IMG/VR virus record: IMGVR_UViG_3300029309_000013
Location: 1-64,000 of that record
DNA from: a virus
Strand: one strand, 5' to 3'
DNA length: 64,000 nucleotides
Part shown: positions 6,426 to 23,939 of the stretch, one piece after another
How the letters are laid out: every line of letters starts with the position of its first letter
How positions within the stretch are numbered: the stretch's first letter is position 1
The notes under the pieces: model-generated
What the model was told of the DNA's origin: nothing
The model's input: only the letters and a program-made list of their open reading frames with translations
The model's database searches: none
Position numbers and translations under genes: made by a program

Positions 6426-7430
6426 ATGAACATAACGAAAGAAAACCTTGTATCGATTATTAAAGAAGAGCTAGATAACGTACTGTCGGAACAAGAACCC
6501 ACGATTGATGAAAAGTGGGAGACTTACAGAGCAACAAGAACCCGTGAATGGGAAAATGCTATTGTTAAATCATTATTTGGAGATAATGAGCCAAGCAAAA
6601 GAGTATATGGCTATCCAGAAAGTCAAGACTTTCGCCAAGGCACTAAAAAAATTAGTGGTATGTTTTTTAATAAATTTGCGAGAGAGCGTTTTGCTAAAGA
6701 ACATGCAGATATTTGGAAGCCAGGATCAAATGATGTAGGATCATATGATGAAGTAAGGAAATTTGTTGTTGATTTAGGGAACGCTTTCTTTACACAAGCT
6801 CAAGTCAACACCCAGGACGGAGCACAACTTACACTTGACCAAGCATCACCGTCGGTAAGAGCAAGCGTTTTGCAATCAAGAGATAATGCCTTAAAGCGAA
6901 GCATAGAAATGATTGATCCACCAAGCAGCGGCACACAAAGCACTAGTGACTCAGGCGATAGAAAGAAAGCCGAGAATGATTACATGAGAGTGTTTAAGTT
7001 TTGGAACGGGGAAGATGAAACCATCAGCAAAATTGGCGGCAATGCTCCGCAGCCGATCACAGCTATCATTAAAGGAGCTTTTGACGTAGAAGACGAGGAT
7101 GCAAAACAAATTGGCTTTACGATATTGAACACTTTGGTTGCGAAAACAAAACCGACATTTAAGGACGGCAGCAGATATTCAGGCGAAAGATTTGGACAAA
7201 GCGATTTCATGAGAATGTTGGCCGACTTTGTGACCGGCGACGTTACTATCGGAAAAGCCGAAGAGCTTGAATGGAAAGAAGGTGAGTTTGAGAAGTACGT
7301 ATTGGGTGTGCTAAATAATATTGCCGACAGAAATCCGGAGCTACAAAAGCGCCGCAAGCAACAACAGGAACCGGAAGCAGAACGACCAAGTTTAAGACAA
7401 AGGTTCAGTAGGTTCTTAGGTAGATCATGA
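6426..7430 (+). CDS. Motif-tagged candidate head cargo protein (334 aa)
   Basis: The ATG at 6426 is chosen for SD GGAG (6415-6418). The open frame extends to a TTG at 6321 but without an SD. The N-terminus reads NLVSIIKEELDNVLSEQ, the short amphipathic motif shared by many proteins between 6.4 and 24 kb. The remaining 310 residues are hydrophilic and largely helical, with a Ser/Gly/Thr linker near residue 160-175 and a basic, Gln-rich end. No known fold is recognised. The motif suggests head targeting with cleavage near the LSE. The stop overlaps the next micro-gene (ATGA). Confidence 0.72.
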   Translation: MNITKENLVSIIKEELDNVLSEQEPTIDEKWETYRATRTREWENAIVKSLFGDNEPSKRVYGYPESQDFRQGTKKISGMFFNKFARERFAKEHADIWKPGSNDVGSYDEVRKFVVDLGNAFFTQAQVNTQDGAQLTLDQASPSVRASVLQSRDNALKRSIEMIDPPSSGTQSTSDSGDRKKAENDYMRVFKFWNGEDETISKIGGNAPQPITAIIKGAFDVEDEDAKQIGFTILNTLVAKTKPTFKDGSRYSGERFGQSDFMRMLADFVTGDVTIGKAEELEWKEGEFEKYVLGVLNNIADRNPELQKRRKQQQEPEAERPSLRQRFSRFLGRS

Positions 7431-7504
7431 TTGTTGTACAAGAAGTATATTGTGATGTATGCGGTTGCACTCCGTGCGATTGCCTATGGGGCACCGATGA
7501 GTGA
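7427..7504 (+). CDS. Cys-rich micro-protein (25 aa)
   Basis: The ATG at 7427 overlaps the preceding TGA by the ATGA arrangement common in this genome, and TGA ends at 7504. The 25 residues include CDVCGCTPCDC, five cysteines in eleven positions, which could hold one zinc ion or form disulfides. There is no strong SD, so it would depend on coupled translation. It is probably real because of the overlap and cysteine spacing, but it is too short for statistics. Confidence 0.45.
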   Translation: MIVVQEVYCDVCGCTPCDCLWGTDE

Positions 7505-7514
7505 GCGTTATCAC

Positions 7515-7530
7515 AAAACTCGAGTTTTTT
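7515..7530 (+). terminator. AAAACTCGAGTTTT palindrome with T-run
   Basis: A perfect 14-base palindrome (7515-7528) ending in a run of six T (7525-7530). It is short for an intrinsic terminator but placed correctly, ten bases after the micro-gene stop. Confidence 0.45.
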
Positions 7531-7546
7531 GACAATTGTGCAACAG

Positions 7547-7574
7547 CCCTCCTATTTATTCAGGAGGGTTTTTT
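7547..7574 (+). promoter_or_regulatory. Hairpin that hides the SD of the lipoprotein gene
   Basis: CCCTCC (7547-7552) pairs perfectly with GGAGGG (7563-7568), a 10-base loop lies between, and six T follow (7569-7574). The GGAGGG is also the only SD for the ATG at 7575. The element has the form of an intrinsic terminator placed on the ribosome site, so read-through and translation would both be limited when it folds. Confidence 0.7.
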
Positions 7575-9137
7575 ATGTTGTGGTTATTTCTAGCTTTTAT
7601 TTCTTGTACGGATTATGGGGTCACTGCTGTTAAGTTAAGAGAACAAGATGTTCTTGCTTATCCCGATCATATAAATTTCGGGCACCTCATTGCTGGTGAC
7701 GAAAGTGACTCGGATAGCTTCGCCGTTATTAATACTGGTGATGAAGTGCTTACCGTGTATAGTGTGGATTTGATTTCAGGAAATAATCGTTTTGGCTTAA
7801 CTGGGCCTGAAGAAGATCGTTATATCATTGAGCCAGGAGAACACATCAGTTTCGATGTCGATTATACTCCTCAGACATTTGAGTCAAACGGTGCTTATGT
7901 TGAGATCACCTCTGATGACCCTGACGAACCAAAGGTTCGGGTCCATCTTGAGGGATATGGAGATGCTCCCGTTATTTCTGTTACACCAGAGGTAACCGAC
8001 TATGGAGATATATCTATCGGCTGTGATAACGAAGAAAGAATAACGATTCGCAACGAAGGCAATATGGATCTTGTTGTTAATGACGTTACCCAACTTGTTA
8101 CTCAACCTGTAGAGATCGTTATGGAGTTTGGTTCTCTTCCGCCTCCGCCTTGGACAATTCCTCCTAATCAAGAGTTAGATTTTCTTGTTTCTTATGTTCC
8201 TTTGGATATTGGTAGTGATCGGTCCGAGATTGAGATTGATTCTAACGATCCAACCAACGGACTTGTGCTTGTTACTCAAGAGGGACACGGCGATATTGAA
8301 CAATGGCACGTTGAAAACTGGGAGCAAGAGGATGTTCCTATCTTGGATATCTTGTGGGTTATCGATGATTCTGGTTCGATGTATCCATTTCAAAATGCTA
8401 TTGGTGTAAATGTCTCTGCTTTCTTTACAAATTTTTTAGCGTCTGCGCCTGACTATCACATGGCTGTTATTACTACGACTAGTCCTCACTTTGTTAACCA
8501 TACTTGGATTGATCAATATACGGTCTATCCTGCCCTTGAGCTTTCGCAAATGGTTACCGTGGGTATTATGGGCGCCGGTATGGAAAAGGGCCTTGAAATG
8601 GCCGCCTTGAGCCTCGCAAGCACTACGGCTGCTGGTCCCGGAGGATTATTTTTTAGGGACGAAGCTGCGCTGGTAGTAATTTGGGTCTCGGATGAGCCTG
8701 ATTGGTCCTCTAACACCTGGAGTTATTACGCCAACTTCTTTTCTAACTTGAAAGATCCCGGTATGTTTTATCCAATTGGTATTATTGGTGATGTTCCTGG
8801 TGGATGTGTATACAACTCTCCTCACGGTATTAGAAATGCACAAGCTGGTGCTGGATATTATGAACTTATAAATTATTTTTACGGTGATGTTTATTCAATA
8901 TGCGCTCAAGATTGGGGTAACCAAATGCAACGAGTGGCGAATAGTGTTGTTAATCGTATTTCATTCCGTCTAGCAAACGCTGATGTTATGGAATCATCCA
9001 TTGAAGTTAGAGTAAACGGACAAATTGTGACCGATTGGACTTTTGACGTTAATGCAAACGCCGTTAAGTTTGATCAAGGCGCTGTCCCAGATGCTGGTAA
9101 CACTATTGAAATCTCATATGCTACTTGGGGTTGCTAA
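7575..9137 (+). CDS. vWA-domain lipoprotein with two anchor-D-like repeats (520 aa)
   Basis: The start at 7575 gives a short lipoprotein signal, MLWLFLAFISC, with the Cys as the likely lipidated residue; the -3 residue (Phe) is not ideal for a lipobox. Residues about 30-135 and 135-245 are two Ig-like repeats of the choice-of-anchor-D/HYDIN type (INFGHL, VINTGDEVL, ITSDDPDEPKVRVHLEG). From about 258 follows a von Willebrand A domain with an intact MIDAS motif DDSGS (264-268) and later IWVSDEPDWS. The C-terminus is a strand-rich tail. It would sit on the host envelope. Such proteins are common in deltaproteobacteria and unexpected in a phage. Possible roles are surface change against superinfection or host adhesion. 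Confidence 0.8.
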   Translation: MLWLFLAFISCTDYGVTAVKLREQDVLAYPDHINFGHLIAGDESDSDSFAVINTGDEVLTVYSVDLISGNNRFGLTGPEEDRYIIEPGEHISFDVDYTPQTFESNGAYVEITSDDPDEPKVRVHLEGYGDAPVISVTPEVTDYGDISIGCDNEERITIRNEGNMDLVVNDVTQLVTQPVEIVMEFGSLPPPPWTIPPNQELDFLVSYVPLDIGSDRSEIEIDSNDPTNGLVLVTQEGHGDIEQWHVENWEQEDVPILDILWVIDDSGSMYPFQNAIGVNVSAFFTNFLASAPDYHMAVITTTSPHFVNHTWIDQYTVYPALELSQMVTVGIMGAGMEKGLEMAALSLASTTAAGPGGLFFRDEAALVVIWVSDEPDWSSNTWSYYANFFSNLKDPGMFYPIGIIGDVPGGCVYNSPHGIRNAQAGAGYYELINYFYGDVYSICAQDWGNQMQRVANSVVNRISFRLANADVMESSIEVRVNGQIVTDWTFDVNANAVKFDQGAVPDAGNTIEISYATWGC

Positions 9138-9174
9138 TATTGTTCGCAACTATTTAGCTTGAGGAACTTTTACC

Positions 9175-9522
9175 ATGATTACTTTTGTAGCACCTAAATT
9201 TTTGGCCGCGATTTCTATTTTTATTAACATTGGAGACATTACTCTTTGGCCTTTTGTTATTACACGCGAACCAATGGATCAGATTACAAAAAATCACAAA
9301 CGAATTCAGTTAAAGCAACAGGAAGAACTTTTAATTTTTGGATTTTACGCTCTGTATATATATTATTGGTTCAAAGGAATGAAAAAATACAAAGGATCCA
9401 AGAGACAAAGGATGCTAGCCTATCGAAACATTCCTTTTGTTAGAGAGGCTTATCAACACCAAATGAGTGATATCTACACTATGAGAAGAAAATCCTACGC
9501 TTGGTGGGAATATAGAAAATGA
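9175..9522 (+). CDS. Small membrane protein (115 aa)
   Basis: GAGG precedes the ATG at a longer spacing. Hydrophobic segments lie at about 5-28 (APKFLAAISIFINIGDITLW) and 60-75 (LLIFGFYALYIYYWF), followed by a basic, aromatic C-terminus (KKYKGSKRQRM, YAWWEYRK). Two membrane passes with the basic tail in the cytoplasm are likely. It overlaps the following kinase gene by 4 bp, so the two are probably made together. Family unknown. Confidence 0.7.
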   Translation: MITFVAPKFLAAISIFINIGDITLWPFVITREPMDQITKNHKRIQLKQQEELLIFGFYALYIYYWFKGMKKYKGSKRQRMLAYRNIPFVREAYQHQMSDIYTMRRKSYAWWEYRK

Positions 9523-11855
9523 GCAACTATAATGATAACTGGAAACAGTTTTTAAATGAAATGTATTCAACCTCTGCAACTAAGCAGGATGGTATGGGTC
9601 TTCCAACAGTATCAGCCGAGGAAGAATTTGAAGGATACAAAGAAAGAGCGCAACACTCATCTGATAATAGGCCTGCGTTACAGAATGTTAGCGAAGAAGA
9701 TGCTATAGAAGAAAAGAAAAAGAAGCGAGATTGCTTTAAAAACAAAACATTCAGTGGAAAAGTACGTTGCACCATCAGGAAAAAAAATATTTCTAAGAAA
9801 CGGGCCTCTGCTTATGTTGCCTCTGTCCTCAGAGATATGGGTGAACTGGATGAAGCTGACTCTTATCACTGGAATGAACCTAGCTGGCATTACGATGGTG
9901 GATATGGAGACCCAGAGGGTCCTGACTCTAAGTGGTATCTTGGCGAAGAAGAACTGGAAGAAAAGAAAAATCGTAAAGGAGCAAGTTCATCATATTGCAA
10001 AAAAACTCCTTGTAAAGATATGGGCTTTACTCAAAAAGCCAGTTGTAAGTCTCAAGGCATAAAAGACTGCTATAGAGGGAAGAAAAATGAATCTAAAGAG
10101 AAAAAGTCTAAAATAGACTTAATGCTACCCAGAGGTAAGAAAGTTGTTCTAAAAGCAGAAGATAAAGATTATGATCGTGGTTTAGTTGTTAAACTACTTG
10201 ATGATGGCGGTTATGATGTTTATTACTGGTATGAAAATCCAGATGATATATATCCAGCAGAAATAAAAATTGATGATAAGTTAATCACTAAAGATGGCAA
10301 GGTTGTTCACATAGGTTATCATCCGGAGTTAAAAAATGAGAGAAAAGATCCTAAAGTCGGTACTGGAAAGAAACCTAAAGGCTCTGGAAGGCGACTGTAT
10401 ACGGATGAGGACCCTAGCGACACTGTTTCTGTTGAATTCTCTAGTGTTGCTGCGATTAAAAGAACGCTAGCTAAGTCTAGTTTTAAGTCTAAGTCTCACA
10501 AAAGACAATCTCAGATAATAAATCTTATACATCAAAGAGCCAGAGCTGCTTACAAGAACGCTAAAGACCCTAAAGTTAAGGCAAGACTCAAGAAAGCTTT
10601 TAAATATGCTGAGCGGAGGAAAGAAGCTTCTAAGAAAAAAACAAAAGCAAGACAAAAAAAGAAAAATGAGAGCCTCCGACGCATCATTCAGGAAGAACTT
10701 AACGTTGTAAGGTTAGAAAAACTGATTAATGTCTCTGATATGGAGTACTTATCTGCTGGTAGATTTGGAAGCGTGTTTACGGCAACACACCCAGAGTATG
10801 GTAACATAGCTCTAAAGGTTCTTAGTTTAGATTCTGGTAAGTCTGATAGTGATTTTGCTGGTGCAGATCCTGTTAAAGTAAGACAAGAGATCAGTAATTA
10901 CGAAAATGTTGGTATTGCTGTCGATTCAAATGATCAAGTTGCTAAACATTTTCCAAAAATTTATGATGTTGGTATGAAAAGAGATGGTGATGATGTAATT
11001 GGTTATGTTATTATGGAACTTATTAAGCCAAGCCCTTATTCACAGGAAATAATTAATACATTATTCTCTGGTGTGGAAAGAATAGCAAGAATTGAGAATG
11101 AAGACTGGTGGACACCTGACCCAATAGGACCTGAGGGTGAATTATATGGTAAAGAATTGTCCATAGACAGAAAAACAGAAAATATTTTTCTTTATGACCA
11201 AGAATCTGTTAAAGGTATGATAAAAGAACTATGGGATCAAATCAAAACAGAACTTGATTGGAGCAACATGGACGAAGATCAGTTAAGTTCCTTGATTCAA
11301 GCTGGATCTGAAGACATAACAAAGATTACCGAAACAATACATGGTTTGTTTCGCAATTACTTTACAAATATTGAAGCAATTTCTGATTCTGCTATTGAAT
11401 CAAGGTATAATCAAGCAAGAAATATGGTATTGAGCGCATCTTCTACGGCAAGTTCTAAGTTAAACAACCTACAATCAATAATTGACTCTGATTATGGTAG
11501 TCGTCCTGTTGCGAAACTTGGCGTCATGGCTGTTACGGCAGCAATACTTGAGTTCTTAAAGAGATTTCCACTAAAAGATAGTTTTGATTATTTCTTGCCG
11601 GGCTGGTTACAAGATGCAATTACCTATCCTAAAATGTTTGAAGTTATTCCTGCGCATTATTATTCAAGTAGCCTTAAGGATGTCCGAAAAGATATACCTG
11701 AAGCTGCTGTATCGCTAGAAAAATCCTTCAAAGCACTAAAAGATGAGGTTGGTCTTGTACCGAGAGACCTTCACTCTTTAAATGTTATGGTTAAAGACGA
11801 TACAGGTGGTATAGTTATAGTTGATGTTGGTAGTTTTCAAGAAGTTAAAGGTTAA
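9519..11855 (+). CDS. Multi-module protein with C-terminal protein kinase domain (778 aa)
   Basis: Modules in order: residues 1-20, NDNWKQFLNEMYST, like a T4 head-targeting peptide; 66-112 and 150-190, basic Cys/Lys modules; 194-280, strand-rich SH3-like; 280-382, a GTGKKPKGSGRRLYTDE module (I recall DUF5824, unchecked); 383-398, ESLRRIIQEELNVV; 405-778, a kinase fold. The kinase shows a Gly loop (GRFGSVFTA, about 412), the ATP Lys in IALKVL, a catalytic RDLHSLNV with Asp and Asn (about 748-755) and DVG in place of DFG. A long insert lies between the lobes. The reaction would be protein phosphorylation. Two head-type motifs suggest it travels inside the virion. Confidence 0.75.
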   Translation: MSNYNDNWKQFLNEMYSTSATKQDGMGLPTVSAEEEFEGYKERAQHSSDNRPALQNVSEEDAIEEKKKKRDCFKNKTFSGKVRCTIRKKNISKKRASAYVASVLRDMGELDEADSYHWNEPSWHYDGGYGDPEGPDSKWYLGEEELEEKKNRKGASSSYCKKTPCKDMGFTQKASCKSQGIKDCYRGKKNESKEKKSKIDLMLPRGKKVVLKAEDKDYDRGLVVKLLDDGGYDVYYWYENPDDIYPAEIKIDDKLITKDGKVVHIGYHPELKNERKDPKVGTGKKPKGSGRRLYTDEDPSDTVSVEFSSVAAIKRTLAKSSFKSKSHKRQSQIINLIHQRARAAYKNAKDPKVKARLKKAFKYAERRKEASKKKTKARQKKKNESLRRIIQEELNVVRLEKLINVSDMEYLSAGRFGSVFTATHPEYGNIALKVLSLDSGKSDSDFAGADPVKVRQEISNYENVGIAVDSNDQVAKHFPKIYDVGMKRDGDDVIGYVIMELIKPSPYSQEIINTLFSGVERIARIENEDWWTPDPIGPEGELYGKELSIDRKTENIFLYDQESVKGMIKELWDQIKTELDWSNMDEDQLSSLIQAGSEDITKITETIHGLFRNYFTNIEAISDSAIESRYNQARNMVLSASSTASSKLNNLQSIIDSDYGSRPVAKLGVMAVTAAILEFLKRFPLKDSFDYFLPGWLQDAITYPKMFEVIPAHYYSSSLKDVRKDIPEAAVSLEKSFKALKDEVGLVPRDLHSLNVMVKDDTGGIVIVDVGSFQEVKG

Positions 11856-11860
11856 ATGAC

Positions 11861-11889: not shown

Positions 11890-11909
11890 AATATAAAGGT
11901 GATAAATTT

Positions 11910-13148
11910 ATGAAAGATCTGTTAAACAAAATTAGCTTACTTAGAGAAAATAAGAACGGTAAAGTGATTACTTTTGATTTTGATAACACAATTGTCTTCT
12001 CTCATGTAAATCATGACGACGAAGGTGGGCTAGCATATGCCCAGGGTGGCTTAAATCACTACATAATCGACCTAATTAAGAGTGTTAAGGCAAAGGGCTA
12101 CACTGTTTTTATCGTTACTGCACGGCAATCCTCGCTTGAACAAGGCGATTCATCTGTTCAAAGCTTCGTTGATAAGTTAAAACTACCAGTGGATGGTGTT
12201 TTCTTCACTAATGGTGAGCCAAAAGCAAGAAAACTGTATGAATTAGGGTCTACTATACACTACGATGATGACCCAAAGGAGCATGAAGCGGTGGTTGCGT
12301 TCCGACAACTACACCCAGACTTCAATATGTCGATAAAATACCCAGATGAGAACCTAAAAGATACTGATGAGGTCGCTAAAGGTATGATTATAACCCTAGA
12401 TGGAAGATATATTATACTAAAAAGGGCTGATACTGGTGAGTGGGATGCTCCCGGTGGTCACTCAAGGCAAGGTGAGACCCCGAATTATGCTTTTTTTAGA
12501 GAAGTAAGGGAGGAAACTGGTCTAAGTCTAGTCAGAGCAGAGTATCTAGAGACTAGATCTGTTGCATTTAACGGTAAAGATGAAGAGATACACTACTTTA
12601 TTGGTCATATCAACAATGATTTTGACGATTTACACAAAATAATCCAACTAGATCAAGAAAATGTTGAGTATTTTGTTGGAGATATAGTAGAAATCATTGA
12701 TAAATGTAAAGAAGGCTGTACAAGGATTGTTAAAGACCTTATTGATATGGTTGATGACGATCAAATAGTCAGAGAAGTAAAGAGTTTTCAAAGCAAAATG
12801 AAGAGTGGTCACCAAAAAGGAAAGAAAAAACTCATTGGGCTTGGCGGAAGCAAGACAACGGGTGCTGATGGGCTTAAAAGAGTCAAAGATTTTACCAGAT
12901 CTAAGTCTCCCCCTGCTGGATTTGGTGTTTTAGAGGAAGAAGATGAACAAAAACGAAAGATTAAAGTTAAAATTCTATCACGAGTTGAGGAAAAAAGAAA
13001 AAAGAAGAAGAAAAAGAAGAAAAAATCTTCAAAACCAAGAAGACAAGCTTACTACGGCGGCTTTTTCCCCTACGGAGGCACTTCAACACAAGATTCAAGC
13101 TCTGGAAGTGGCGATGCAGGAGGAGATGGAGGCGGTGGCGGTGAGTAA
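11910..13148 (+). CDS. HAD phosphatase-Nudix hydrolase fusion (412 aa)
   Basis: AAGGTG precedes the ATG. Residues 1-15 contain ISLLREN, a possible head-type motif. Residues 18-140 are a HAD-type phosphatase (FDFDNT nucleophile motif, IVTARQS, HYDDDP). Residues 152-260 are a Nudix domain with a complete box: GETP, then REVREETGL. After about 290 comes a basic stretch (GHQKGKKKLIGLGG, SKSPPAGFGVLEEE), a run of ten lysines, and a Gly/Ser/Asp-rich tail. Nudix enzymes cut nucleoside-diphosphate-linked compounds, and the HAD part would remove a phosphate. The pair might process NAD, ADP-ribose or RNA ends. The next gene overlaps by 8 bp. Confidence 0.8.
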   Translation: MKDLLNKISLLRENKNGKVITFDFDNTIVFSHVNHDDEGGLAYAQGGLNHYIIDLIKSVKAKGYTVFIVTARQSSLEQGDSSVQSFVDKLKLPVDGVFFTNGEPKARKLYELGSTIHYDDDPKEHEAVVAFRQLHPDFNMSIKYPDENLKDTDEVAKGMIITLDGRYIILKRADTGEWDAPGGHSRQGETPNYAFFREVREETGLSLVRAEYLETRSVAFNGKDEEIHYFIGHINNDFDDLHKIIQLDQENVEYFVGDIVEIIDKCKEGCTRIVKDLIDMVDDDQIVREVKSFQSKMKSGHQKGKKKLIGLGGSKTTGADGLKRVKDFTRSKSPPAGFGVLEEEDEQKRKIKVKILSRVEEKRKKKKKKKKKSSKPRRQAYYGGFFPYGGTSTQDSSSGSGDAGGDGGGGGE

Positions 13149-14008: not shown

Positions 14009-15577
14009 ATGCATTGCAAAATAGTTAACAATGCCGGGATTGACCTCGGTGACCTTGAGCAACATGTGCAAGATATGTACGCTCATTTTGATAATCGTGT
14101 AGGCTTCAAAAAGCCTCCTGTTATGGTCTTTGATTCAGACCCAGGCAATGAGACCAACACTCTTGGAAAGACAGCGTACTACGATCCTCAGACGTTTGAG
14201 GTACATGTTTATGTGGACGGTCGTCATCCAAAGGATATGTTGCGTTCAATCGCACATGAACTAATTCACCATCAACAGAATCTTGAAGGTAGACTTGATG
14301 TCGGTGGTTATCAAGGAGACGGCTACTATTTAAAGAACAAAGCTATGCGCTCGCTTGAGCAAGAAGCTATGCTTAATGGTAACAGATTCTTAAGAGAATA
14401 TGAAGATCAACTTAAATTAAATAAGGAGGGGCTTAACATGTCCACTAAAGATTGGAAAAATAAAGAACTTTTTGAAAACCTTGCTCAGCGCTGGGGATTT
14501 GGACATAGGGTCATCTCAGAAGCTCACTGTTTTGGTGAAGATGTACAAGAGGCACACTGTAACGAAAGTCAGCTTGAACAGGATCTGGCTGCTCTTGATC
14601 TTGAAGGGGGCAAAGATTACGCGGAAATGAGCAACCCCGAGTTAACTAAACACTTTAAAAGTAAAGTTCACTATAAAATTAAAGCCGGTGCTGCTGAGGT
14701 TATTGCAGGCAGGGATGATCATCCACTCCAAGGTGAAGCTATTGAGTACTTGAAAAAACAAGAAATAGAAGAAGAAAAGACCCCTAAGTATGACGATAAC
14801 CCAGGGCTTGAAGGGGGTCAGAAAACAAAGCTTCCGGACGCACTTCAAAAAGCTATTTTAAACAAAAAAGGTGCTCTTGAAGAAGAAGAAAGAATGCCTT
14901 CTGGTGCTGAGGCAGAAGCTGCTGCTAAGGTAGCAAAAATGAAAGGCGAAAAACCAAAAGGTAAAAAAGTTGAAGAAGCCACCGAGACCTATAGTGCAGA
15001 TCTCGATTTCATGAAGAAATACCTAAGATTGAAAGGTTATAAGAATTTGGAGAGTAGGAAAGAAGAAAAAATAAAACAACTATACACCCAATCTCTTTTC
15101 TCCAGGGGACTTACTAAACCAAGTCTTGATGACTTGGAAAAGATGGGCATAGAGCGAGTTGATGAAATTCTTGGAGTCGCAGCAATGGCTGGTGGAGCCG
15201 CTGCTCTTGTTGCTCTGGTTAGTAAAATTGTGGGAATGAATCAGGATCAAACTAAAAAATTTGAGGCTTTCTTGGAAGCCAATCCTACGGTTCAGAAAAA
15301 TCTTGATTACTATAAAGGTCAAATTGAAATTGCCGTGACCCGTAGAGAGAGGGCAGAAGCCCAAAAGGCTTTTGCTAAATACAGCCGAGCAATTACATTA
15401 TCAGATAAATTTCGAGACTTTGAACCCAAAAAAGTTGATGAGACCTCAGCCATGGCTGGTGCTGGTGGTGGTGTTCAGGGTTACGCAGGTGAACTCAAGG
15501 AGTCTCTTGAAAACCTAATCAACGAAGCGCTTACTAGCAATAAGAAAATTAGACAACTACTGAAAGGAAGAAAATAA
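14009..15577 (+). CDS. Zinc metalloprotease-like multi-module protein with head-type motif (522 aa)
   Basis: Residues 1-135 form a compact metalloprotease-like domain with HELIHHQQN (about 88-96), the HExxH zinc motif. EQEAMLNGNRF near 112-122 may give the third ligand. The rest is a string of acidic-helical modules with EEEK and EEEER linkers, a hydrophobic Ala/Gly stretch (LGVAAMAGGAAALVALV, about 388-404), then DETSAMAGAGGGVQGYAG and a C-terminal ESLENLINEALTS. INE/A fits the T4 gp21 cleavage rule (L/I-x-E, cut before A/G/S). A packaged protease is possible. No SD is visible, so the start is not certain. Confidence 0.7.
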   Translation: MHCKIVNNAGIDLGDLEQHVQDMYAHFDNRVGFKKPPVMVFDSDPGNETNTLGKTAYYDPQTFEVHVYVDGRHPKDMLRSIAHELIHHQQNLEGRLDVGGYQGDGYYLKNKAMRSLEQEAMLNGNRFLREYEDQLKLNKEGLNMSTKDWKNKELFENLAQRWGFGHRVISEAHCFGEDVQEAHCNESQLEQDLAALDLEGGKDYAEMSNPELTKHFKSKVHYKIKAGAAEVIAGRDDHPLQGEAIEYLKKQEIEEEKTPKYDDNPGLEGGQKTKLPDALQKAILNKKGALEEEERMPSGAEAEAAAKVAKMKGEKPKGKKVEEATETYSADLDFMKKYLRLKGYKNLESRKEEKIKQLYTQSLFSRGLTKPSLDDLEKMGIERVDEILGVAAMAGGAAALVALVSKIVGMNQDQTKKFEAFLEANPTVQKNLDYYKGQIEIAVTRRERAEAQKAFAKYSRAITLSDKFRDFEPKKVDETSAMAGAGGGVQGYAGELKESLENLINEALTSNKKIRQLLKGRK

Positions 15578-16419
15578 TGTCTATAATACAAATTACAGAT
15601 ATTGATAAATTTTATGATCTTACAAAGGGTAAAAGAATTATGAGAGAAGAAGTAATAGCCGAACAACTAATAAGAAAATTTATTAGAAAAAATTTACCTT
15701 CTGTTATGGAAAGAGTAAATAAGCAAAAGAACAAACAATTACAAGAAGAACAAGAACTAAGAGCAATTATTCGACAAATGTTGATTGAGCGTGATATTGC
15801 TGATAACTATCCTCATAGATCCACTGGTATTAATACCCTCGAAGATGTTCTCAAAAAAATGATTACTACCCTTCGTGGAGATTACAAAAGACTTACAACC
15901 GACAAGTCACAGCGGGAGTCTTATCGAGCGCACTTGCTCAATGCAATTACAATGTCTCTACAGCCTGCCGAAGCAAATGATATGTCCGACGGTGGAGACT
16001 CTGCTTTGTTATCTGCACCAACTGAGCCTAGTGAAGAAACTCCAACACCAAGAGAGCCCGCTTTCACAATGGATGACCTGGATGAAGATCTCGGAGTTGA
16101 TATTGTTGATGATAAAGAAAAAATGATTGATGTTGAAGGCGATGATAAGCCAGATGAATTTGAAGAATTTAGAGCAGAGACTGGTGATGAAAGTTTAGAC
16201 CGTACCGGTGCTCGTGCTGCTTTTGATACCCATAAGAAAGTTGGCCAATACATTCTTGATGGTTTTGAAAAACTTGATAACCCAACTGATGCTGAGGATT
16301 TCAAGGATTATTTGGTTACCAATGTTAAGCTTTACATGGATAAATTCGAAAGTGAATTGGCTCAAGATTTAGATGAACCAACAACTTTAGAATATGAAAA
16401 AATTACAGGACATAAATAA
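15577..16419 (+). CDS. Acidic candidate head or scaffold-type protein (280 aa)
   Basis: The start overlaps the previous stop by one base. The N-terminal third is helical with two copies of the recurring motif type (REEVIAEQLIRKFIRKNL at about 23-40; EQELRAIIRQMLIE at about 58-71). Then comes a conserved-looking block (STGINTLEDVLKKMITTLRGDY) and a long acidic, Pro/Ser-rich centre (EPSEETPTPREP, DLDEDLGVDIVDDKE). The C-terminus is helical. High acidity and the head-type motifs would fit a prohead core or internal protein. That is an inference. Confidence 0.65.
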   Translation: MSIIQITDIDKFYDLTKGKRIMREEVIAEQLIRKFIRKNLPSVMERVNKQKNKQLQEEQELRAIIRQMLIERDIADNYPHRSTGINTLEDVLKKMITTLRGDYKRLTTDKSQRESYRAHLLNAITMSLQPAEANDMSDGGDSALLSAPTEPSEETPTPREPAFTMDDLDEDLGVDIVDDKEKMIDVEGDDKPDEFEEFRAETGDESLDRTGARAAFDTHKKVGQYILDGFEKLDNPTDAEDFKDYLVTNVKLYMDKFESELAQDLDEPTTLEYEKITGHK

Positions 16420-16846: not shown

Positions 16847-17566
16847 ATGGATTTAGAAGAAAAGAAACGTAGAAAAAAAAGAAAAGTAAAAGCTAAAAAA
16901 ACAAAAAGAGATGCCTGCTACCATAAGGTCAAAAGACGTTATAAGGTCTGGCCTTCAGCATACGCTTCAGGTGCTCTTGTTAAATGCAGAAAAGTTGGCG
17001 CAGCTAATTGGGGCAATAAATCCAAAAAGAACGAGTCACTGACTGAGGAAAAAGAAATGACTGTATCAGCAGTCAAAGCAATCTTTAAGGAAAAAGGTGG
17101 TGCTCTTGCGATGCAAGATCTTAAGGATGCCTTCCCAGACGCTTCAGAAAAAGAGATTGAAGAAATGTTAGCCAGTATGAAAGATGTTGGTGAGCATAAA
17201 CATGGCGATCTTGTTCGTGCTGATGGTGATGAAATTGAGATAAACGAAGAGCAGCTAGCAGCTATTATCGCAGAAGAAATTGAGGCAGTCCTCAATGAAA
17301 AAAAAAAGAGAAAGTTAACTAAGAAGCCAAGTTCGGAGAAAAATTTACGTGATTGGTTTGGAAGAAAAGGCGCTAAAGGTTCTAAAGGCGGTTGGGTCGA
17401 CTGTAATGCACCAGATGGTAAAGGTGGTTATAAAGCGTGTGGAAGGTCTTCAGGTGAAAAGCGAAAGAAGTATCCAGCTTGTAGACCAACTCCATCTGCT
17501 TGTAAGTCTAAAGGTAAAGGTAAAAAATGGGGCAAGAAGGCCGGTAAAGGCAAAAAGGGTAAATAG
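16847..17566 (+). CDS. Basic Cys/Lys-rich module protein with head-type motif (239 aa)
   Basis: AAGGGG precedes the ATG. The N-terminal module (DACYHKVKRRYKVWPSAYAS, then LVKCRKVG) is basic with two Cys. The middle is a small winged-helix-like acidic segment (AVKAIFKEKGGALAMQDL). Then comes the head-type motif EEQLAAIIAEEIEAVLNE (about 132-149). The C-terminal module (GGWVDC, YKACGRSSGEKRKK, YPACRPTPSACKS) ends in a Gly/Lys tail. I recall the last module as DUF5872, known from large DNA viruses and phages, unchecked. The strong positive charge would suit binding of packaged DNA. Confidence 0.7.
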   Translation: MDLEEKKRRKKRKVKAKKTKRDACYHKVKRRYKVWPSAYASGALVKCRKVGAANWGNKSKKNESLTEEKEMTVSAVKAIFKEKGGALAMQDLKDAFPDASEKEIEEMLASMKDVGEHKHGDLVRADGDEIEINEEQLAAIIAEEIEAVLNEKKKRKLTKKPSSEKNLRDWFGRKGAKGSKGGWVDCNAPDGKGGYKACGRSSGEKRKKYPACRPTPSACKSKGKGKKWGKKAGKGKKGK

Positions 17567-17568
17567 AT

Positions 17569-17973
17569 ATGAATGAAATATTGATTTATGAAGGCGATGA
17601 TGTTATACTAGAATTGTTCGAAGGAGCAACACTTGAAGAAGGCGATTTAGTATGTGAAGCTTGTTTATTTGAGATGCTCCAAGAGGCCTCTTGTGGCTGC
17701 CCAAACTTAATGGGTGAAGCAGTCTATCAGGGAAAAACCGTGCAACTTAACAAACCAACTCGTGGTGATGTTAAGAAATTTAAAGTCTATGTTAACTCCG
17801 GTAAAAAAGACAAAGAGGGTAGAGTTATTGCTAAAAAAGTAAACTTTGGTGATAAAAACATGAAGATTAAAAAGTCAAACCCAAAGCGAAGAAAGTCATT
17901 TAGAGCAAGGCACAAGTGCCACACTGCTAAAGACAAAACAACACCTAGGTACTGGTCTTGTAAGAAATGGTAG
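17569..17973 (+). CDS. Small Cys/Lys-rich protein, probable head-associated module (134 aa)
   Basis: It starts two bases after the previous stop. The first 50 residues are acidic with LVCEACLFEMLQEASCGC and NLMGEAVYQG. LQE/A fits the gp21 cleavage rule. The rest (VQLNKPTRGDVKKFKVYV, KVNFGDKNMKIKKSNP, KRRKSFRARHKCHTAKDK, YWSCKKW) is a basic module that I recall from marine T4-type phages and large viruses, without a proven function. Acidic pro-part plus basic body would suit a protein processed in the prohead. Confidence 0.65.
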   Translation: MNEILIYEGDDVILELFEGATLEEGDLVCEACLFEMLQEASCGCPNLMGEAVYQGKTVQLNKPTRGDVKKFKVYVNSGKKDKEGRVIAKKVNFGDKNMKIKKSNPKRRKSFRARHKCHTAKDKTTPRYWSCKKW

Positions 17974-17983
17974 AGGATTTATT

Positions 17984-18727
17984 GTGAAGTTGTTAATGGA
18001 AAATTGGAGAAGTTATTTAAACGAGGCTTACGCTGGAACTGGCTTTGGAGGTACTTTAAACCCCCCAAGGTTCATGCTAAATCCTGGTGAAGCCCAAAAA
18101 GTTGTTAAAGAAGGGATTCAGCTTGAGGGTTGGGATAGATACGGTCAATTAGTAGCAGAGGCTTATTTGGCGGCACCGAAGAGTAGTGCCGATGGGTTGA
18201 AATCCTTTGAAGCTCTAAAGAAACACATCTACGTTAACTTCAAGAGAATTGTCGGTGGTAATGTGGACGTTGTTTTTGTTGACCATGATCCATACGAGTC
18301 AGCCGAACAAATGCTTGATGATGTTAGGAAGACGGGTGTGATGAAAATTTCATCTTTGTTCAATCAACCTGAGTACTTTGGACCTGAGTTGAATCTCCAA
18401 TTCAGAGCAGTTCATGACTATTATGCTCATATGAAAGCATCGTCACAAGCAGCTGACGCCCTCACTGGTTTTACCTACGAAGGAGAGATTAGAGCTTTCA
18501 ATAACCACGCAGCACTACTTGGTAAGACAGCAAAAGCCCTCCCAGCAGTTTTTACAGAGGTTGTTGGACAAGCATCTGTGTATTTTTATACCGGCAATTT
18601 CCCTGACCAGAAATTAGTCACCCTTCCAGGGTTTGATCCTACTAAACTAGGTCAAGTTTCGGGGTATACGATAATTGATAAGAATTTAGTTAAGGCCGGT
18701 GAAACACCAGAAGAGGAAGAAGTATAA
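17984..18727 (+). CDS. Head-tagged protein with FRAVHD...H...E..GQ pattern (247 aa, GTG start)
   Basis: GTG at 17984 has SD AGAGGA (17972-17977). The N-terminus is MKLLMENWRSYLNEAYAGTG, very close in form to T4 internal-protein targeting peptides, with LNE/A as a perfect gp21-type site. The body contains LQFRAVHDYYAHM, EGEIRAFNNHAALL and FTEVVGQASVYFYTGNF. Conserved His, Asp and Glu in this spacing suggest a metal-binding enzyme. I recall a similar pattern in other phage proteins of unknown function. Confidence 0.68.
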   Translation: MKLLMENWRSYLNEAYAGTGFGGTLNPPRFMLNPGEAQKVVKEGIQLEGWDRYGQLVAEAYLAAPKSSADGLKSFEALKKHIYVNFKRIVGGNVDVVFVDHDPYESAEQMLDDVRKTGVMKISSLFNQPEYFGPELNLQFRAVHDYYAHMKASSQAADALTGFTYEGEIRAFNNHAALLGKTAKALPAVFTEVVGQASVYFYTGNFPDQKLVTLPGFDPTKLGQVSGYTIIDKNLVKAGETPEEEEV

Positions 18728-19135: not shown

Positions 19136-19155
19136 TAATGTAAATGAGGCATAAC

Positions 19156-19959: not shown

Positions 19960-19965
19960 GTATTA

Positions 19966-20039
19966 GCACCCGTAGCTCAACTGGATAGAGCATCTGCCTT
20001 CTAAGCAGAGGGTTACAGGTTCGAGTCCTGTCGGGTGTA
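19966..20039 (+). tRNA. tRNA-Arg (anticodon UCU)
   Basis: A 74-base cloverleaf: acceptor arms GCACCCG (19966-19972) and CGGGTGT (20032-20038), D arm GCTC/GAGC, anticodon stem TCTGC/GCAGA with loop CTTCTAA (anticodon TCT), T arm ACAGG-TTCGAGT-CCTGT, discriminator A. CCA is not encoded. It reads AGA, the arginine codon preferred in the structural genes but not in the early array. Confidence 0.93.
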
Positions 20040-20056
20040 CTTTTTTAGGAGTTAAA

Positions 20057-20479: not shown

Positions 20480-20799
20480 AAATATTTTATTTAAAAAGAG
20501 AAGAAGATGAGAGCGGAATCTCTGGAACAGGAAGAGTCGCTCAGGGATTTGTTTTCGACAACGGTAAAGTGGCTGTTACTTGGCTATCTGAACACCCTTC
20601 CGTTACCGTATACGATAGTATTGGTGAAGTACATGCAATTCATGGTCATGGTGGAAAAACAGTTGTAGAAATGGAACCAGATTACAAAAAGGCTTTTGGT
20701 GAAGTTAAATCTTTTTTGGACAATTTTGATCTAAAAGAAATTGCTGGTGCTAAGTTAACCCCGGAAGGAGCGGCGTCAAAACTAATGAGTAGAAACTAG
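20476..20799 (+). CDS. Unknown protein with IHGHGG motif (107 aa)
   Basis: ATG at 20476 overlaps the previous stop (ATGA) and has AGAGGA nine bases ahead. An in-frame ATG at 20470 is too close to it. A strand-rich N-terminal domain (FYLKREED, GFVFDNGKVAVTWLSE) leads to VHAIHGHGGKTVVEM and a helical C-terminus. I recall similar small domains in phages without a known role. The His cluster could bind metal or phosphate. Confidence 0.65.
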   Translation: MKIFYLKREEDESGISGTGRVAQGFVFDNGKVAVTWLSEHPSVTVYDSIGEVHAIHGHGGKTVVEMEPDYKKAFGEVKSFLDNFDLKEIAGAKLTPEGAASKLMSRN

Positions 20800-20820
20800 T
20801 TACATTGAGAGGTAAACATT

Positions 20821-21315
20821 TTGAGCCAGCTGACTCTAAAATTAGACGCCGCTTGGCAACCCATAGAAGTTATATCTTCTGACCGGGGCTTCACAATGGT
20901 TCATTCAGGAAGGGCAAAGGCTATTGAGTTATACAACGATGGTCCTTGCCCTTTTTATTTTTACCCCTCAGTTATAGTTTTAAACAAATATATCAGGACA
21001 AAAAGAATTATTATGAGTCCTACAAGAAAAAATATTTACTGGAGAGACAAATATATATGTCAATATTGTGGTGATAGGTTTCCTTATTCTGGCTTGACCC
21101 TAGATCACATAGTACCAAAAGCATCAGGTGGTCAAGGTGGTTGGCTTAACTTAGTAACAGCCTGTGTTAAGTGTAATCAGAAGAAGGGTTGTAAGTCTGT
21201 CTCTGAAGCTGATATGGAGCTGATAAAAGAACCTACCAAGCCTCACATTAATATTTTAAACTTTTACCACCTCAACAAAGTTCCAAAACAATGGGAAAAT
21301 TACATTTCATATTAA
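20821..21315 (+). CDS. HNH endonuclease (164 aa, TTG start)
   Basis: TTG at 20821 with SD GAGAGG (20807-20812) eight bases ahead. The C-terminal half is a clear HNH nuclease: CQYCGD, LTLDHIVPKASGG, NLVTACVKCNQKKG, with two CxxC pairs for zinc and DH plus N for catalysis. The N-terminal half (WQPIEVISSDRGFTMVHSGR) resembles the segment found in stand-alone bacterial and phage HNH proteins. It could be a homing-type or packaging/defence nuclease. No intron or intein is seen near it. Confidence 0.85.
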   Translation: MSQLTLKLDAAWQPIEVISSDRGFTMVHSGRAKAIELYNDGPCPFYFYPSVIVLNKYIRTKRIIMSPTRKNIYWRDKYICQYCGDRFPYSGLTLDHIVPKASGGQGGWLNLVTACVKCNQKKGCKSVSEADMELIKEPTKPHINILNFYHLNKVPKQWENYISY

Positions 21316-21324
21316 GGAGAAAAA

Positions 21325-21570
21325 ATGAAACTTGAAGATCCAATACTAGAACAACTGGTCCAGCGCGCCGAAGAGGATGAGACCGGACAACTAATGATGA
21401 TGATGCAAGAACTTATCCATGTATCATCAAAGGCAGCAGAGCTTGGTTTTGAACTACAAGAACTAGCCAGTGTATGCACAATGGGCCACTTTCTGGGTAA
21501 AAACCCTGAGTATATACAAGCCTTGGCTTATTTGATGGAGAGGGGCGTAGATACAGACACAGAGCATTAA
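21325..21570 (+). CDS. Unknown helical protein (81 aa)
   Basis: SD AAGGAG before the ATG, 9 bases after the HNH gene. All-helical by eye, with four Met in a row (QLMMMMQELIHV) and a second helix pair (ELGFELQELASVCTMGHFLG, EYIQALAYLMERG). It ends at a strong terminator. Family unknown. Confidence 0.68.
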   Translation: MKLEDPILEQLVQRAEEDETGQLMMMMQELIHVSSKAAELGFELQELASVCTMGHFLGKNPEYIQALAYLMERGVDTDTEH

Positions 21571-21579
21571 TCAGTATAT

Positions 21580-21605
21580 AAGGCAGGGGTAATTCCCTGC
21601 CTTTT
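21580..21605 (+). terminator. Rho-independent terminator
   Basis: AAGGCAGGG (21580-21588), a 6-base loop and CCCTGCCTT (21595-21603), then TT. A nine-bp G+C-rich stem with a T-run. It ends the 19.1-21.6 kb unit (mannomutase, tRNA, HNH). Confidence 0.85.
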
Positions 21606-21648
21606 GTCTATTTAAATGTGTAGATAAAATATTCATTGAGGGCTAAAG

Positions 21649-21936
21649 ATGGAAATCACAAAAGACAAGCTATTGCAAATTATCAAAGAAGAGATTCAAA
21701 AAGTAACAGAACAAGAGGGTCTTGGGGGTGACCTAGAGGCTGAACCTTCAAATTCTCAAGAGATGGCTGAAAAATTTAAGAAACTTTCTCAAATATTCCC
21801 ACAACTAGTAGATATTGAAGATCGAGAACGTGATCTTCTTAATACAATTATTTTTGGATCAATTGATTTAGCTGCGAAAGGGGCGCAGTACAACAACCTA
21901 GCGGTTGTTAAAGCTGAGCTGGAGAAGTATTTATAA
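21649..21936 (+). CDS. Small motif-tagged candidate head cargo protein (95 aa)
   Basis: The N-terminus reads ITKDKLLQIIKEEIQKVTEQE, almost the same as the start of the protein at 6426 (ITKENLVSIIKEELDNVLSEQ), while the two bodies differ. The rest is a helical domain (EMAEKFKKLSQIFPQL, RDLLNTIIFGSIDLAAKGA). This is the cleanest example of one N-terminal tag on unrelated bodies. The stop overlaps the next start by one base. Confidence 0.68.
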   Translation: MEITKDKLLQIIKEEIQKVTEQEGLGGDLEAEPSNSQEMAEKFKKLSQIFPQLVDIEDRERDLLNTIIFGSIDLAAKGAQYNNLAVVKAELEKYL

Positions 21937-23939
21937 TGAAAAAACAAGATATAGCAAAACTATTGGTTAACCACCCAGCAATCAAGTTACTTAGAGAATC
22001 TGATGAAGATGGTCATTTACTTGGTATCATGGCGGAAGAAATTAAAGATCTAGAAGAGGCAATTTCAACAATTACCAGAAATAAGGGTGCTCAAGTAAAA
22101 AAAGAACTGGACGGCGCTATTGAGAAAAATGAAGTTGATAAATGGCTTGATAAGTATTTCCCAGGGGGTGAGTTTTCTTTTGCCGGGCTTGGTACCGGAA
22201 GGGGTACTGATAAGCAATCGATAGAACGGTACTTAGCCAACAAGCCAGAAGAGCTAGAATATTTGAAAAAAAGAATCATTGGCTATGTTAAGCAAGCTCT
22301 GGAAACTAAAGGTGTAGGGTTCGAAGGAGAAAAGGAAGAGTACTTTGGAAGTGAGTGGTTAGCAACACCTGCACAACTTCCCCCTACAAAGGATTCATCT
22401 TCAACCAACATAACCCCAGAAATTAGGCAACAATTTGAAAACAGATTGAAAGATATCGTTGAAGCTCCAGCAGTTGAGCCTTTTTTATCTTTTTTCACTC
22501 TTTTGGTCAGACAACAGGTAAGAGAGGAAGTAACACTACCGCAAGCGTTACAAGGAGCCAATCTTCTTGGGGGAGAAAACACTTCAAAGGTCAGAGAAGC
22601 ATTGCTTCAAATGGAAAAATCCGACAGAATTACCATCCTTCAGGCATTTAAACAACTAGATTCTACAAAGCAAACATATTTGGTTGATATGATAAAAGAT
22701 GTATTACCAGAAGTACCAGCTAAAGTTGAACCAGAGATTGTAGATGATGAGGAAGAAGAGACTGCACAACAAGATCCAGAAACTGAAGAAGGGACTGTAC
22801 AACAAGAACCAGAAACTGAAGAAGGGACTGTACAACAAGAACCGGAAACTGAAGAAGTTGTTATATCCAAAGAAGATCTTGATCATCATAAGGAAAAGTT
22901 TATTAAATTTTTCTCTTCTGAGAGACGTGTTGGATTTATGCAACAAATGTTTCTAGATGAACAGTCCAAACTTCTGGTTTCTCTATTGAGTGCCTTAAGG
23001 GGTCTGCTTGGCGATAGCTCTAGGGCTAAAGCAATTGGTGTCTCTGAATTGGATGAATCTCAACATGACTCTTTGGATGTCCCAATGGGAGAAAGACGAG
23101 CCATTGTTAAGGATATGAAAAACATTAAAATCACAATGGAAGATCTGGTGTTTATTCTTAAGCGCTACAGGGAGCAAATGAATAAAGTGTCTGCCTACGA
23201 AAAATTTGATGGTACTAAACTCAAAAAAAGAGTAAAGAATGATCTAGAAGATACACAGATAGCAATTGCAAAGCTTTATAGAAATATAGTCAAAGTTATA
23301 CTCTCCGGAGAGGATATCATTAAAGAGCAAGATGAGGGTCCGTCTGCTGAAGAAAAAGCAAAAAACGTTAGAAGAGTGTATGGTGAGCTTCTAACAACTT
23401 ATAATGATTCTCTAGAGCCAATTATTAGAGGTGAGGTTGACTTTGATGGAGCAACAGTAAAAAACACAGCGCAGAGCATGCTAGATTTAATTCTAAGTTC
23501 AGGCATTGTTGATTATTTTCCAAGTGAAAACATAAGATTCTCACCAAAAGTTGATGCTAGAACAACTTTAAAAGACGCAATGAATCATCTGGCTGATAGT
23601 CTAAAAGAATTAGCCACTTTTATTTCTCGTGTATTTGCAAGAGTCAACACAAATGATATAACAGAAGCACAAGCCAGAACATTTCTTAAAAAATTAAGAG
23701 ACATCTCGATTGTATTAGAGAGAGATTTTGGGGCTGAGTCTGTTATTAATGCATTACCAGAGATCGAAGAGGAAAACCCAGAGAACTCATTGGGCACCCC
23801 CCCTCAAAATAGAGATGATAGAACCATGATGGACAGGATTGATGATTTTGTTTTAAACCCACTTCTGTCCCAACCAGCCAACATATACGAGAAAATAATT
23901 CCAATTGTGGAAAAAATTATAAAGGACCAACATGGCTAA
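21936..23939 (+). CDS. Large helical protein with acidic repeats, possible head or core protein (667 aa)
   Basis: The N-terminus (AKLLVNHPAIKLLRESDED) contains LRE/S, which fits the gp21 cleavage rule. The body is helical and charged. Residues about 275-308 are three 11-residue acidic repeats of the type TVQQEPETEEG that act as a linker. The C-terminal 350 residues are helical (EERRAIVKDMKNIKI-like stretch, then LKELATFISRVFARV). No enzyme motif is found. It overlaps the PhoH gene by 8 bp. Scaffold, internal or unrelated cytoplasmic roles are all possible. Confidence 0.65.
   Translation: MKKQDIAKLLVNHPAIKLLRESDEDGHLLGIMAEEIKDLEEAISTITRNKGAQVKKELDGAIEKNEVDKWLDKYFPGGEFSFAGLGTGRGTDKQSIERYLANKPEELEYLKKRIIGYVKQALETKGVGFEGEKEEYFGSEWLATPAQLPPTKDSSSTNITPEIRQQFENRLKDIVEAPAVEPFLSFFTLLVRQQVREEVTLPQALQGANLLGGENTSKVREALLQMEKSDRITILQAFKQLDSTKQTYLVDMIKDVLPEVPAKVEPEIVDDEEEETAQQDPETEEGTVQQEPETEEGTVQQEPETEEVVISKEDLDHHKEKFIKFFSSERRVGFMQQMFLDEQSKLLVSLLSALRGLLGDSSRAKAIGVSELDESQHDSLDVPMGERRAIVKDMKNIKITMEDLVFILKRYREQMNKVSAYEKFDGTKLKKRVKNDLEDTQIAIAKLYRNIVKVILSGEDIIKEQDEGPSAEEKAKNVRRVYGELLTTYNDSLEPIIRGEVDFDGATVKNTAQSMLDLILSSGIVDYFPSENIRFSPKVDARTTLKDAMNHLADSLKELATFISRVFARVNTNDITEAQARTFLKKLRDISIVLERDFGAESVINALPEIEEENPENSLGTPPQNRDDRTMMDRIDDFVLNPLLSQPANIYEKIIPIVEKIIKDQHG
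22760..22858 (+). repeat. Three tandem 33-bp units
   Basis: Units at 22760-22792, 22793-22825 and 22826-22858. The second and third differ at one base before their ends, and the first has two further changes. In frame they encode three acidic 11-residue repeats. Such arrays change copy number easily by slippage. Confidence 0.9.

What the first reader, a model, noticed from the sequence alone, without database searches (positions are those of the whole stretch)
6426..23939. A shared head-type targeting/cleavage motif on a whole set of unrelated proteins: candidate virion-packaged effector arsenal
At least nine proteins carry a short amphipathic motif at an N-terminus, a C-terminus or a module junction. 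Examples are NLVSIIKEELDNVLSEQ (6426), NWKQFLNEMYS and ESLRRIIQEELNVV (9519), ESLENLINEALTS (14009), EQELRAIIRQMLIE (15577), EEQLAAIIAEEIEAVLNE (16847), EMLQEA (17569), ENWRSYLNEAYAGTG (17984), KLLQIIKEEIQKVTEQE (21649) and KLLRES (21936). The bodies differ: kinase, HAD-Nudix (weaker, LLREN), metalloprotease, basic modules. Known: T4 internal proteins enter the head by a short N-terminal capsid-targeting peptide and are cut by gp21 after L/I-x-E. Inference: these proteins are co-packaged, trimmed in the prohead and injected with the DNA. I have not seen such a broad tag set described.
Basis: partly seen in the sequence, partly recalled or inferred. Interest (0 to 1): 0.9.

Follow-up and report, generated by a model that had tools for sequence, protein, structure and literature searches.

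The report
Head-packaging tags on phage effector proteins
[quoted passage not shown] the principle is known from phage T4, but this tag set and its scale were not found in the papers searched.

Summary
There are two tags, not one motif. Tag A (M-K-L-L-M-E-N-W-R-x-[FY]-L-[NK]-E) lies at N-termini. Tag B (M-K-[IL]-T-K-x-Q-L-[KR]-x-I-I-K-E-E-h) lies at N-termini and, in this window, also at module junctions and probably one C-terminus. Eight quoted peptides hold (six strong, two fair); EMLQEA, KLLRES and LLREN are not above background.
In 1,961 proteins of ten related genomes tag A occurs 38 times near the N-terminus and never elsewhere (0.02 expected). An IMG/VR scan found 84 stretches; every in-frame match inspected lies at a gene start. 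A permuted peptide gave 0, and bacterial genomes one internal chance hit. The tags sit on 126 body families.
Tag A reproduces the residues that matter in T4's IPIII capsid-targeting sequence (Y4, F7, I8, E10) in the same spacing, and conservation ends at the last E. All ten tag-A contigs of at least 130 kb carry the T4-type prohead protease. The window's contig stops just before that gene's expected place.
Best reading: capsid-targeting propeptides on packaged, probably injected, proteins. Cleavage, packaging and injection are inferred. The concept is known from T-even phages; these tags, their scale and the A/B exchange appear new.

The parts
6426..6491 (+). Tag B at N-terminus of a 334-aa protein (ATG at 6426): MNITKENLVSIIKEELDNVLSE
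   Evidence: matches the tag B consensus
6426..7430 (+). Tag-B protein of unknown function (no family match)
9519..9560 (+). Tag A variant at N-terminus: MSNYNDNWKQFLNE
10668..10709 (+). Tag B at the junction between basic Cys/Lys-rich modules and the kinase-like domain: ESLRRIIQEELNVV
   Evidence: a homologue in G037 carries tag A at its N-terminus, one in G039 a tag-B-like C-terminus
9519..11855 (+). 778-aa protein: basic modules plus C-terminal protein-kinase-like domain
   Evidence: (phrog_18305 kinase, E 4.8e-6)
11910..11948 (+). Weak candidate cleavage site MKDLLNKISLLRE before the HAD-Nudix body; not above background by itself
15500..15538 (+). Tag-B-like segment near the C-terminus of the metalloprotease-like protein 14009-15577: ESLENLINEALTS (fair support)
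15748..15789 (+). Tag-B-like conserved helix EQELRAIIRQMLIE in the 280-aa protein 15577-16419; conserved in homologues (fair support)
17246..17299 (+). Tag B at a module junction: EEQLAAIIAEEIEAVLNE; the two halves are separate proteins in relative G030, each starting with its own tag B
16847..17566 (+). 239-aa basic two-module protein; modules recur in cyanophages and Flavobacterium phage immuto
17671..17688 (+). EMLQEA in 17569-17973: not supported by itself, but homologous bodies carry tag A in G024 and tag B in G030
17984..18025 (+). Tag A at N-terminus (GTG start): VKLLMENWRSYLNE
   Evidence: L4, E6, N7, W8 and R9 invariant in a seven-member family
17984..18727 (+). Tag-A protein; predicted body matches a domain found in phage polyvalent and head-associated proteins
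21649..21717 (+). Tag B at N-terminus: MEITKDKLLQIIKEEIQKVTEQE
21936..21998 (+). Weak candidate site MKKQDIAKLLVNHPAIKLLRE (LLRE|S, as in T4 gp24 and the clade MCP); not above background by itself

Best explanation
Tags A and B are capsid-targeting propeptides of a clade of T4-like myoviruses. The newly made tagged proteins bind, through the tag, to the scaffold or core inside the prohead and are enclosed. The S77 (gp21-type) prohead protease cuts after the Glu of [LI]-x-E at the end of tag A, and in or just after tag B, which frees the body. The bodies (kinases, Nudix and HAD phosphatases, zeta-toxin-like P-loop kinases, GNAT acetyltransferases, a nucleotidyltransferase, small basic proteins) stay in the head with the DNA and are injected as early effectors or counter-defence proteins. 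Tags at junctions arise when two tagged genes fuse. Shown here: the tags, their position, the spread over unrelated bodies, peptide-level conservation up to the Glu, and co-occurrence with the protease. Inferred: binding, cleavage, packaging and injection.
For: Tag statistics. Viral scan: 84 stretches, 84 in-frame matches in the 80 inspected, all at gene starts; permuted control 0; one internal chance hit in bacterial genomes. 126 body families; in an alignment of 94 tagged proteins the only consensus is MKLxMENWRxxLxE, with the last E one of just two columns at 90% or more. T4 IPIII: residues 4 and 7 govern targeting, 8 and 10 processing (PMC9026906); ipII/ipIII read MKTYQEFIAE; tag A has W, F/Y, L, E in the same spacing. 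The T4-derived pattern Ar-x-x-[FY]-[LIVM]-x-E is 3-22x enriched at N-termini in 9 of 9 clade genomes and 0-1.3x in seven other records. With no constraint imposed downstream, E is kept in 36 of 42 tags and conservation falls at the next residue. S77 protease in 10/10 tag-A contigs of at least 130 kb, 0/11 random control contigs; gp23-type MCP in the same ten. Clade MCPs read LLRE or LLKE at the T4 gp23 cut position and the proteases start with similar sites. Tagged genes lie next to the protease in G039, G011 and G013; one next to it in G021 also carries the scaffold's C-terminal RWxxLAGI. The window's right-end gene precedes terL in eight clade relatives. Homologous bodies carry A in one phage and B in another. 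The 17984 body resembles domains of polyvalent and head-associated proteins, a class predicted to be injected (PMC5512222).
Against: No virion proteomics was found for this clade; cleavage and injection are unproven. The record itself lacks the head genes because it is truncated. Tag B does not have the Ar-x-x-F pattern of T4's sequence, so its role rests on head-module position, body sharing with tag A and a nearby [LIVM]xE (73% against 11% background). Seventeen of 164 tag-A-like N-termini lack the final E. The distant S77 phages G009, G006 and Mel-JY01 have essentially no such tags, so the tag is not a general feature of S77 phages. The random control contigs are mostly small (three of at least 130 kb) and not matched for habitat. 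Body clustering used a simple BLAST cut-off, so the number of truly unrelated families may be below 126.
Confidence: 0.8

Rival explanations
1. The tags direct the proteins into the prohead, where they act as core or structural parts (DNA condensation, scaffold accessories) and are not injected to act on the host.
For: Several tagged proteins are small and basic or sit in the head module next to protease and scaffold.
Against: Many bodies are enzymes with no obvious structural use (Nudix, HAD, zeta-toxin-like kinases, GNAT, protein kinase, nucleotidyltransferase), and the set differs from phage to phage, as T-even internal proteins do.
Confidence: 0.12
2. The tags are docking helices for another destination (tail or baseplate, host membrane, replication complex), unrelated to the head protease.
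For: Tag B alone is a plain amphipathic helix and has no T4 counterpart by sequence.
Against: Co-occurrence with S77, the L-x-E ending with an abrupt conservation stop, exact spacing of T4 capsid-targeting residues in tag A, and placement beside protease and scaffold genes.
Confidence: 0.06
3. The conserved start is a DNA or RNA element (promoter, recombination seed, translation enhancer) that happens to be read as a peptide.
For: Tagged genes occur in tandem runs, as expected for spread by recombination; the first Glu of tag A favours GAA.
Against: Synonymous codons for N, R, L and the last E vary as in the genome background; tag B also appears inside proteins and near C-termini.
Confidence: 0.02

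Closest known systems
Capsid-targeting sequence (CTS) of phage T4 internal proteins IPI, IPII, IPIII and Alt, cut by gp21
   Same: Short N-terminal peptide ending at [LI]-x-E, identical spacing of the four experimentally mapped residues in tag A, same protease family, different bodies behind one tag
   Different: Different sequence (W instead of Y, the MENWR block), a second unrelated tag B, more than a hundred body families, tags at junctions and probably at a C-terminus, phages of an uncultured clade
T-even internal protein repertoire (Repoila et al. 1994, as cited in PMC12373910, PMC9026906 and PMC3012670)
   Same: Variable set of packaged proteins united only by the targeting tag
   Different: At least ten internal proteins reported there; here the bodies are far more numerous and include many recognisable enzymes
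phiKZ-like giant phage propeptides (SPN3US gp47, gp53, gp54; PMC5694885)
   Same: Head proteins cut after Glu by a gp21-related protease, several of them ejected
   Different: Those propeptides are mostly longer than 100 residues; the tags here are about 14-22 residues
Polyvalent proteins (PMC5512222) and the P1 DarB targeting signal (PMC9024508)
   Same: Packaged or predicted-injected effectors; the 17984 body resembles domains found in polyvalent proteins; P1 DarB uses an N-terminal signal

Membership tests
T4-type capsid-targeting sequence | Short N-terminal peptide shared by proteins with otherwise different bodies | tested here: met
   All 84 in-frame viral matches inspected lie at gene starts; 126 body families
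T4-type capsid-targeting sequence | Tag A: aromatic at position 4 and F at 7 (targeting), I at 8 and E at 10 (processing), spacing i, i+3, i+4, i+6 | tested here: met
   W, F/Y, L/I, E at the same spacing
T4-type capsid-targeting sequence | Tag B: the same aromatic-x-x-F-[LI]-x-E residues | tested here: not met
   Tag B consensus is MK[IL]TKxQL[KR]xIIKEEh; it may work like a CTS, but is not a member by this feature
T4-type capsid-targeting sequence | Phage encodes a gp21-type S77 prohead protease | tested here: met
   10/10 tag-A contigs of at least 130 kb; absent from the window's own record, which is truncated before that position
T4-type capsid-targeting sequence | Tag ends at the protease's own cleavage consensus in that phage | tested here: met
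   L-[RK]-E at the gp23 cut position of the MCP in nine uncultured genomes, V-S-E in immuto; tag A ends L-x-E; tag B contains I-K-E and is followed by [LIVM]xE in 73%. The MCP cut itself is inferred from T4
T4-type capsid-targeting sequence | Tagged protein is found cleaved in the virion and enters the host | not testable with these tools
   Needs proteomics of virions
Polyvalent proteins | Several disparate effector domains in one polypeptide | tested here: inconclusive
   9519 and 16847 are multi-module; most tagged proteins appear to be single small proteins
Polyvalent proteins | Domain repertoire shared with known polyvalent proteins | tested here: met
   The 17984 body matches viral models annotated as head morphogenesis, ART-PolyVal-like or polyvalent-associated, Foldseek E 1e-8 to 1e-5

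The most novel reading that the evidence does not exclude
Two unrelated but interchangeable capsid-packaging tags form a plug-in system in an uncultured T4-like clade, letting each phage swap more than a hundred effector families into its heads. Junction tags act as internal protease sites that split fused effectors, so injected effectors could be read directly from metagenomes by their tag.
Probability: 0.55. Interest if true: 0.85.

Novelty: new variant of a known kind. Interest (0 to 1): 0.74.

Why it matters
Which phage proteins enter the cell with the DNA is usually unknown without proteomics. A tag that can be read from sequence alone would give a list of candidate first-minute effectors and anti-defence proteins for an uncultured phage group. 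It would also give a second natural, sequence-defined address for loading proteins into T4-like heads, and a test of how targeting and cleavage residues co-evolve with the protease.

Tried and rejected
Rejected as evidence: the weak sites EMLQEA, KLLRES and LLREN. Considered and rejected: a DNA or RNA element, a chance amphipathic helix, wrongly called gene starts (every in-frame viral match inspected has a start codon within about 13 residues upstream). Led nowhere: Pfam, PHROGs and PDB sequence searches gave nothing useful for most window bodies; the PDB fold search of the 17984 body found no match; a fold of five possible ADP-ribosyltransferase proteins was too poor to use, so their ART identity stays a lead with weak Pfam hints. 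A tblastn search with the tag found no cultured phage apart from one chance-level match in a gokushovirus; with so short a query this is a weak negative. Text searches for the tag letters found no phage paper, and a search for immuto found no virion proteomics paper, but only open-access papers are held. PADLOC hits among tagged bodies were few and mostly weak. One locus of the viral scan (L107) gave no in-frame match to the peptide, and four further stretches were not inspected individually.
Full report
What the window is. The window is the first 64,000 bases of a 79,313-base linear IMG/VR virus record. Its tail genes resemble those of Flavobacterium phage immuto, Microcystis phage Mel-JY01 and a set of uncultured contigs. 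It holds no gp21-type (S77) prohead protease. Its last genes are collinear with relatives in which the next genes are terL, portal and, a few genes on, the S77 protease: the truncated gene at record position 78984 has homologues directly upstream of terL in G011, G013, G019, G021, G024, G030, G037 and G039. So the protease is most likely missing because the contig ends there, although this cannot be proved from the record.

What the motif is. Tag A in its clean form is M-K-L-L-M-E-N-W-R-x-[FY]-L-[NK]-E. In the record it is on 9519 (variant), 17984 and 69838. Tag B is M-K-[IL]-T-K-x-Q-L-[KR]-x-I-I-K-E-E-h (profile from 63 tags). It is on 6426, 21649 and 76677, inside 9519 and 16847 at module junctions, and in weaker form in 15577 and near the C-terminus of 14009. 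The three shortest calls (EMLQEA, KLLRES, LLREN) cannot be told from background, because any [LI]xE turns up in residues 4-35 of about 30-40% of proteins.

More than chance. In 1,961 predicted proteins of ten related genomes tag A occurs 38 times within 45 residues of the start and never elsewhere; shuffled sequences give 0.02. Tag B occurs 43 times near the start against 2.9 expected; it also has 28 internal matches against about 9 expected. A scan of 2.9 million viral contigs for a DNA pattern of M-E-N-W-R-x-[FY]-L-[NK]-E found 84 stretches; in the 80 inspected there are 84 in-frame matches, all at the start of an open reading frame. The same pattern with its residues permuted found none. 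The original pattern in 257 Gb of bacterial and archaeal genomes found one site, at residue 241 of a 395-residue frame. Two large phage contigs without the protease have no N-terminal A or B tag in 531 genes. Synonymous codons within tag A are as varied as in the genome at large for N, R, L and the final E; only the first E favours GAA. Selection is therefore mainly on the peptide.

The tag is modular. Two hundred and thirteen distinct tagged proteins fall into 126 body families by BLAST at E 1e-3, 92 of them singletons. When 94 tagged proteins, nearly all from different families, were aligned, the only N-terminal consensus was MKLxMENWRxxLxE, and its final E was one of two columns at 90% or more. 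Family searches name a Nudix hydrolase, protein kinases, a zeta-toxin-like P-loop kinase, GNAT acetyltransferases, HAD-type and 5'-nucleotidase-type phosphatases and a nucleotidyltransferase. Most bodies have no name.

Why capsid targeting and cleavage. First, in T4 the first ten residues of IPIII suffice for packaging; residues 4 and 7 govern targeting, and 8 and 10 processing (PMC9026906). T4 IPII and IPIII both read MKTYQEFIAE, that is Y4, F7, I8, E10. Tag A has W, F/Y, L, E in exactly this spacing, and these are among its most conserved residues, with freer positions between. A pattern built only from the T4 residues is enriched 3-22-fold at N-termini in nine of nine clade genomes and not in seven other records. 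Second, conservation stops at that Glu: in 42 tags from nine genomes, chosen without any constraint downstream, E is kept in 36 and the next positions are free; in 164 tags the information drops from 3.5 to 0.85 bits, but about half of those came from a pattern that demanded the E. Third, all ten tag-A contigs of at least 130 kb encode an S77 protease and a gp23-type capsid protein, against 0 of 11 contigs found with a random 16-mer; those controls are mostly shorter. Fourth, the clade's capsid proteins carry LLRE or LLKE immediately before the start of the mature-like region, where T4 gp23 has FLTE, and the proteases begin with similar L-x-E sites. Fifth, tagged genes lie beside the protease in G039, G011 and G013, and one beside it in G021 has tag A at its start and the scaffold's RWxxLAGI-type ending at its C-terminus.

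Tags A and B appear equivalent. The 17569 body has tag A in G024 and tag B in G030. The kinase body has tag A in G037, tag B at a junction in this window, and a tag-B-like C-terminus in G039. The two halves of 16847 are separate proteins in G030, each with its own tag B, so the junction tag here looks like a relic of gene fusion that could also serve as a cleavage point. C-terminal processing has a precedent: T4 Alt is cut at both ends (PMC5694885). For tag B the case is less direct: it has no aromatic-x-x-F, but its core contains I-K-E and 46 of 63 have [LIVM]xE within ten residues, against 11% in other windows of the same proteins.

Body of one window protein. The 17984 family (seven members aligned) shares the tag. 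Its model (mean confidence 77) shows a poorly ordered N-terminal helix with the tag, then a disordered stretch, then a folded body. No solved structure matches. Viral models that match include parts of proteins annotated as head morphogenesis, ART-PolyVal-like or polyvalent-associated. Polyvalent proteins are predicted to be injected with the DNA (PMC5512222).

Known or new. That T-even internal proteins are a diverse set united only by a capsid-targeting sequence is established (PMC3012670; PMC12373910). New here are the sequences of the tags, their number and variety of bodies, the exchange of two tags, their place at junctions, and their presence in a large uncultured group; no phage paper in the open library prints them. 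I file it as a new variant of a known kind.

What is shown and what is inferred. Shown by computation: both tags, their positions, their non-random distribution, peptide-level conservation up to the Glu, co-occurrence with protease and capsid genes, and exchange between homologous bodies. Inferred: binding to the prohead core, cleavage, packaging, injection and action on the host.

Noticed in passing
G021 123980 (L183), G039 124455 (L163), scaffold genes of ten genomes: Scaffold proteins of the clade end in a conserved RWxxLAGI- or RMxxLAGI-type C-terminus, also found on two other proteins of the head module: possibly a second, C-terminal head-targeting or capsid-binding motif.
   Followed up: partly
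window 16847-17566 and 9519-11855; S-SM1 SSM1_115 (L238:3023-4510): Cys/Lys-rich basic modules recur in cyanophages and immuto; in S-SM1 the gene lies next to neck and small-terminase genes.
   Followed up: partly
G011 95375 (L059), G039 124858 (L163), Mel-JY01 22183 (L240): A ribosomal protein S21-like gene sits between protease and scaffold in several of these phages (annotated as RpsU in Mel-JY01).
   Followed up: no
window 15577-16419; G011 167837, G024 90348: Homologues of this 280-aa protein are the C-terminal part of about 1000-aa proteins whose N-terminus looks like an RNA ligase or nucleotidyltransferase.
   Followed up: no
window 7536-9137: Possible secreted lipoprotein with a VWA-like domain among the tagged genes; it bears no tag.
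   Followed up: no
window 26862-35055: Block of glycosyltransferase and nucleotide-sugar genes between PhoH and the tail genes.
   Followed up: no
L106:4509-4871, L109:4259-4651, L121:2348-2749, L143:5828-6205, L085:1743-2468: Several tag-A proteins start their body with YHG, YHA or YRG motifs suggestive of ADP-ribosyltransferases, which would parallel T4 Alt; only weak profile hints and no usable model.
   Followed up: partly
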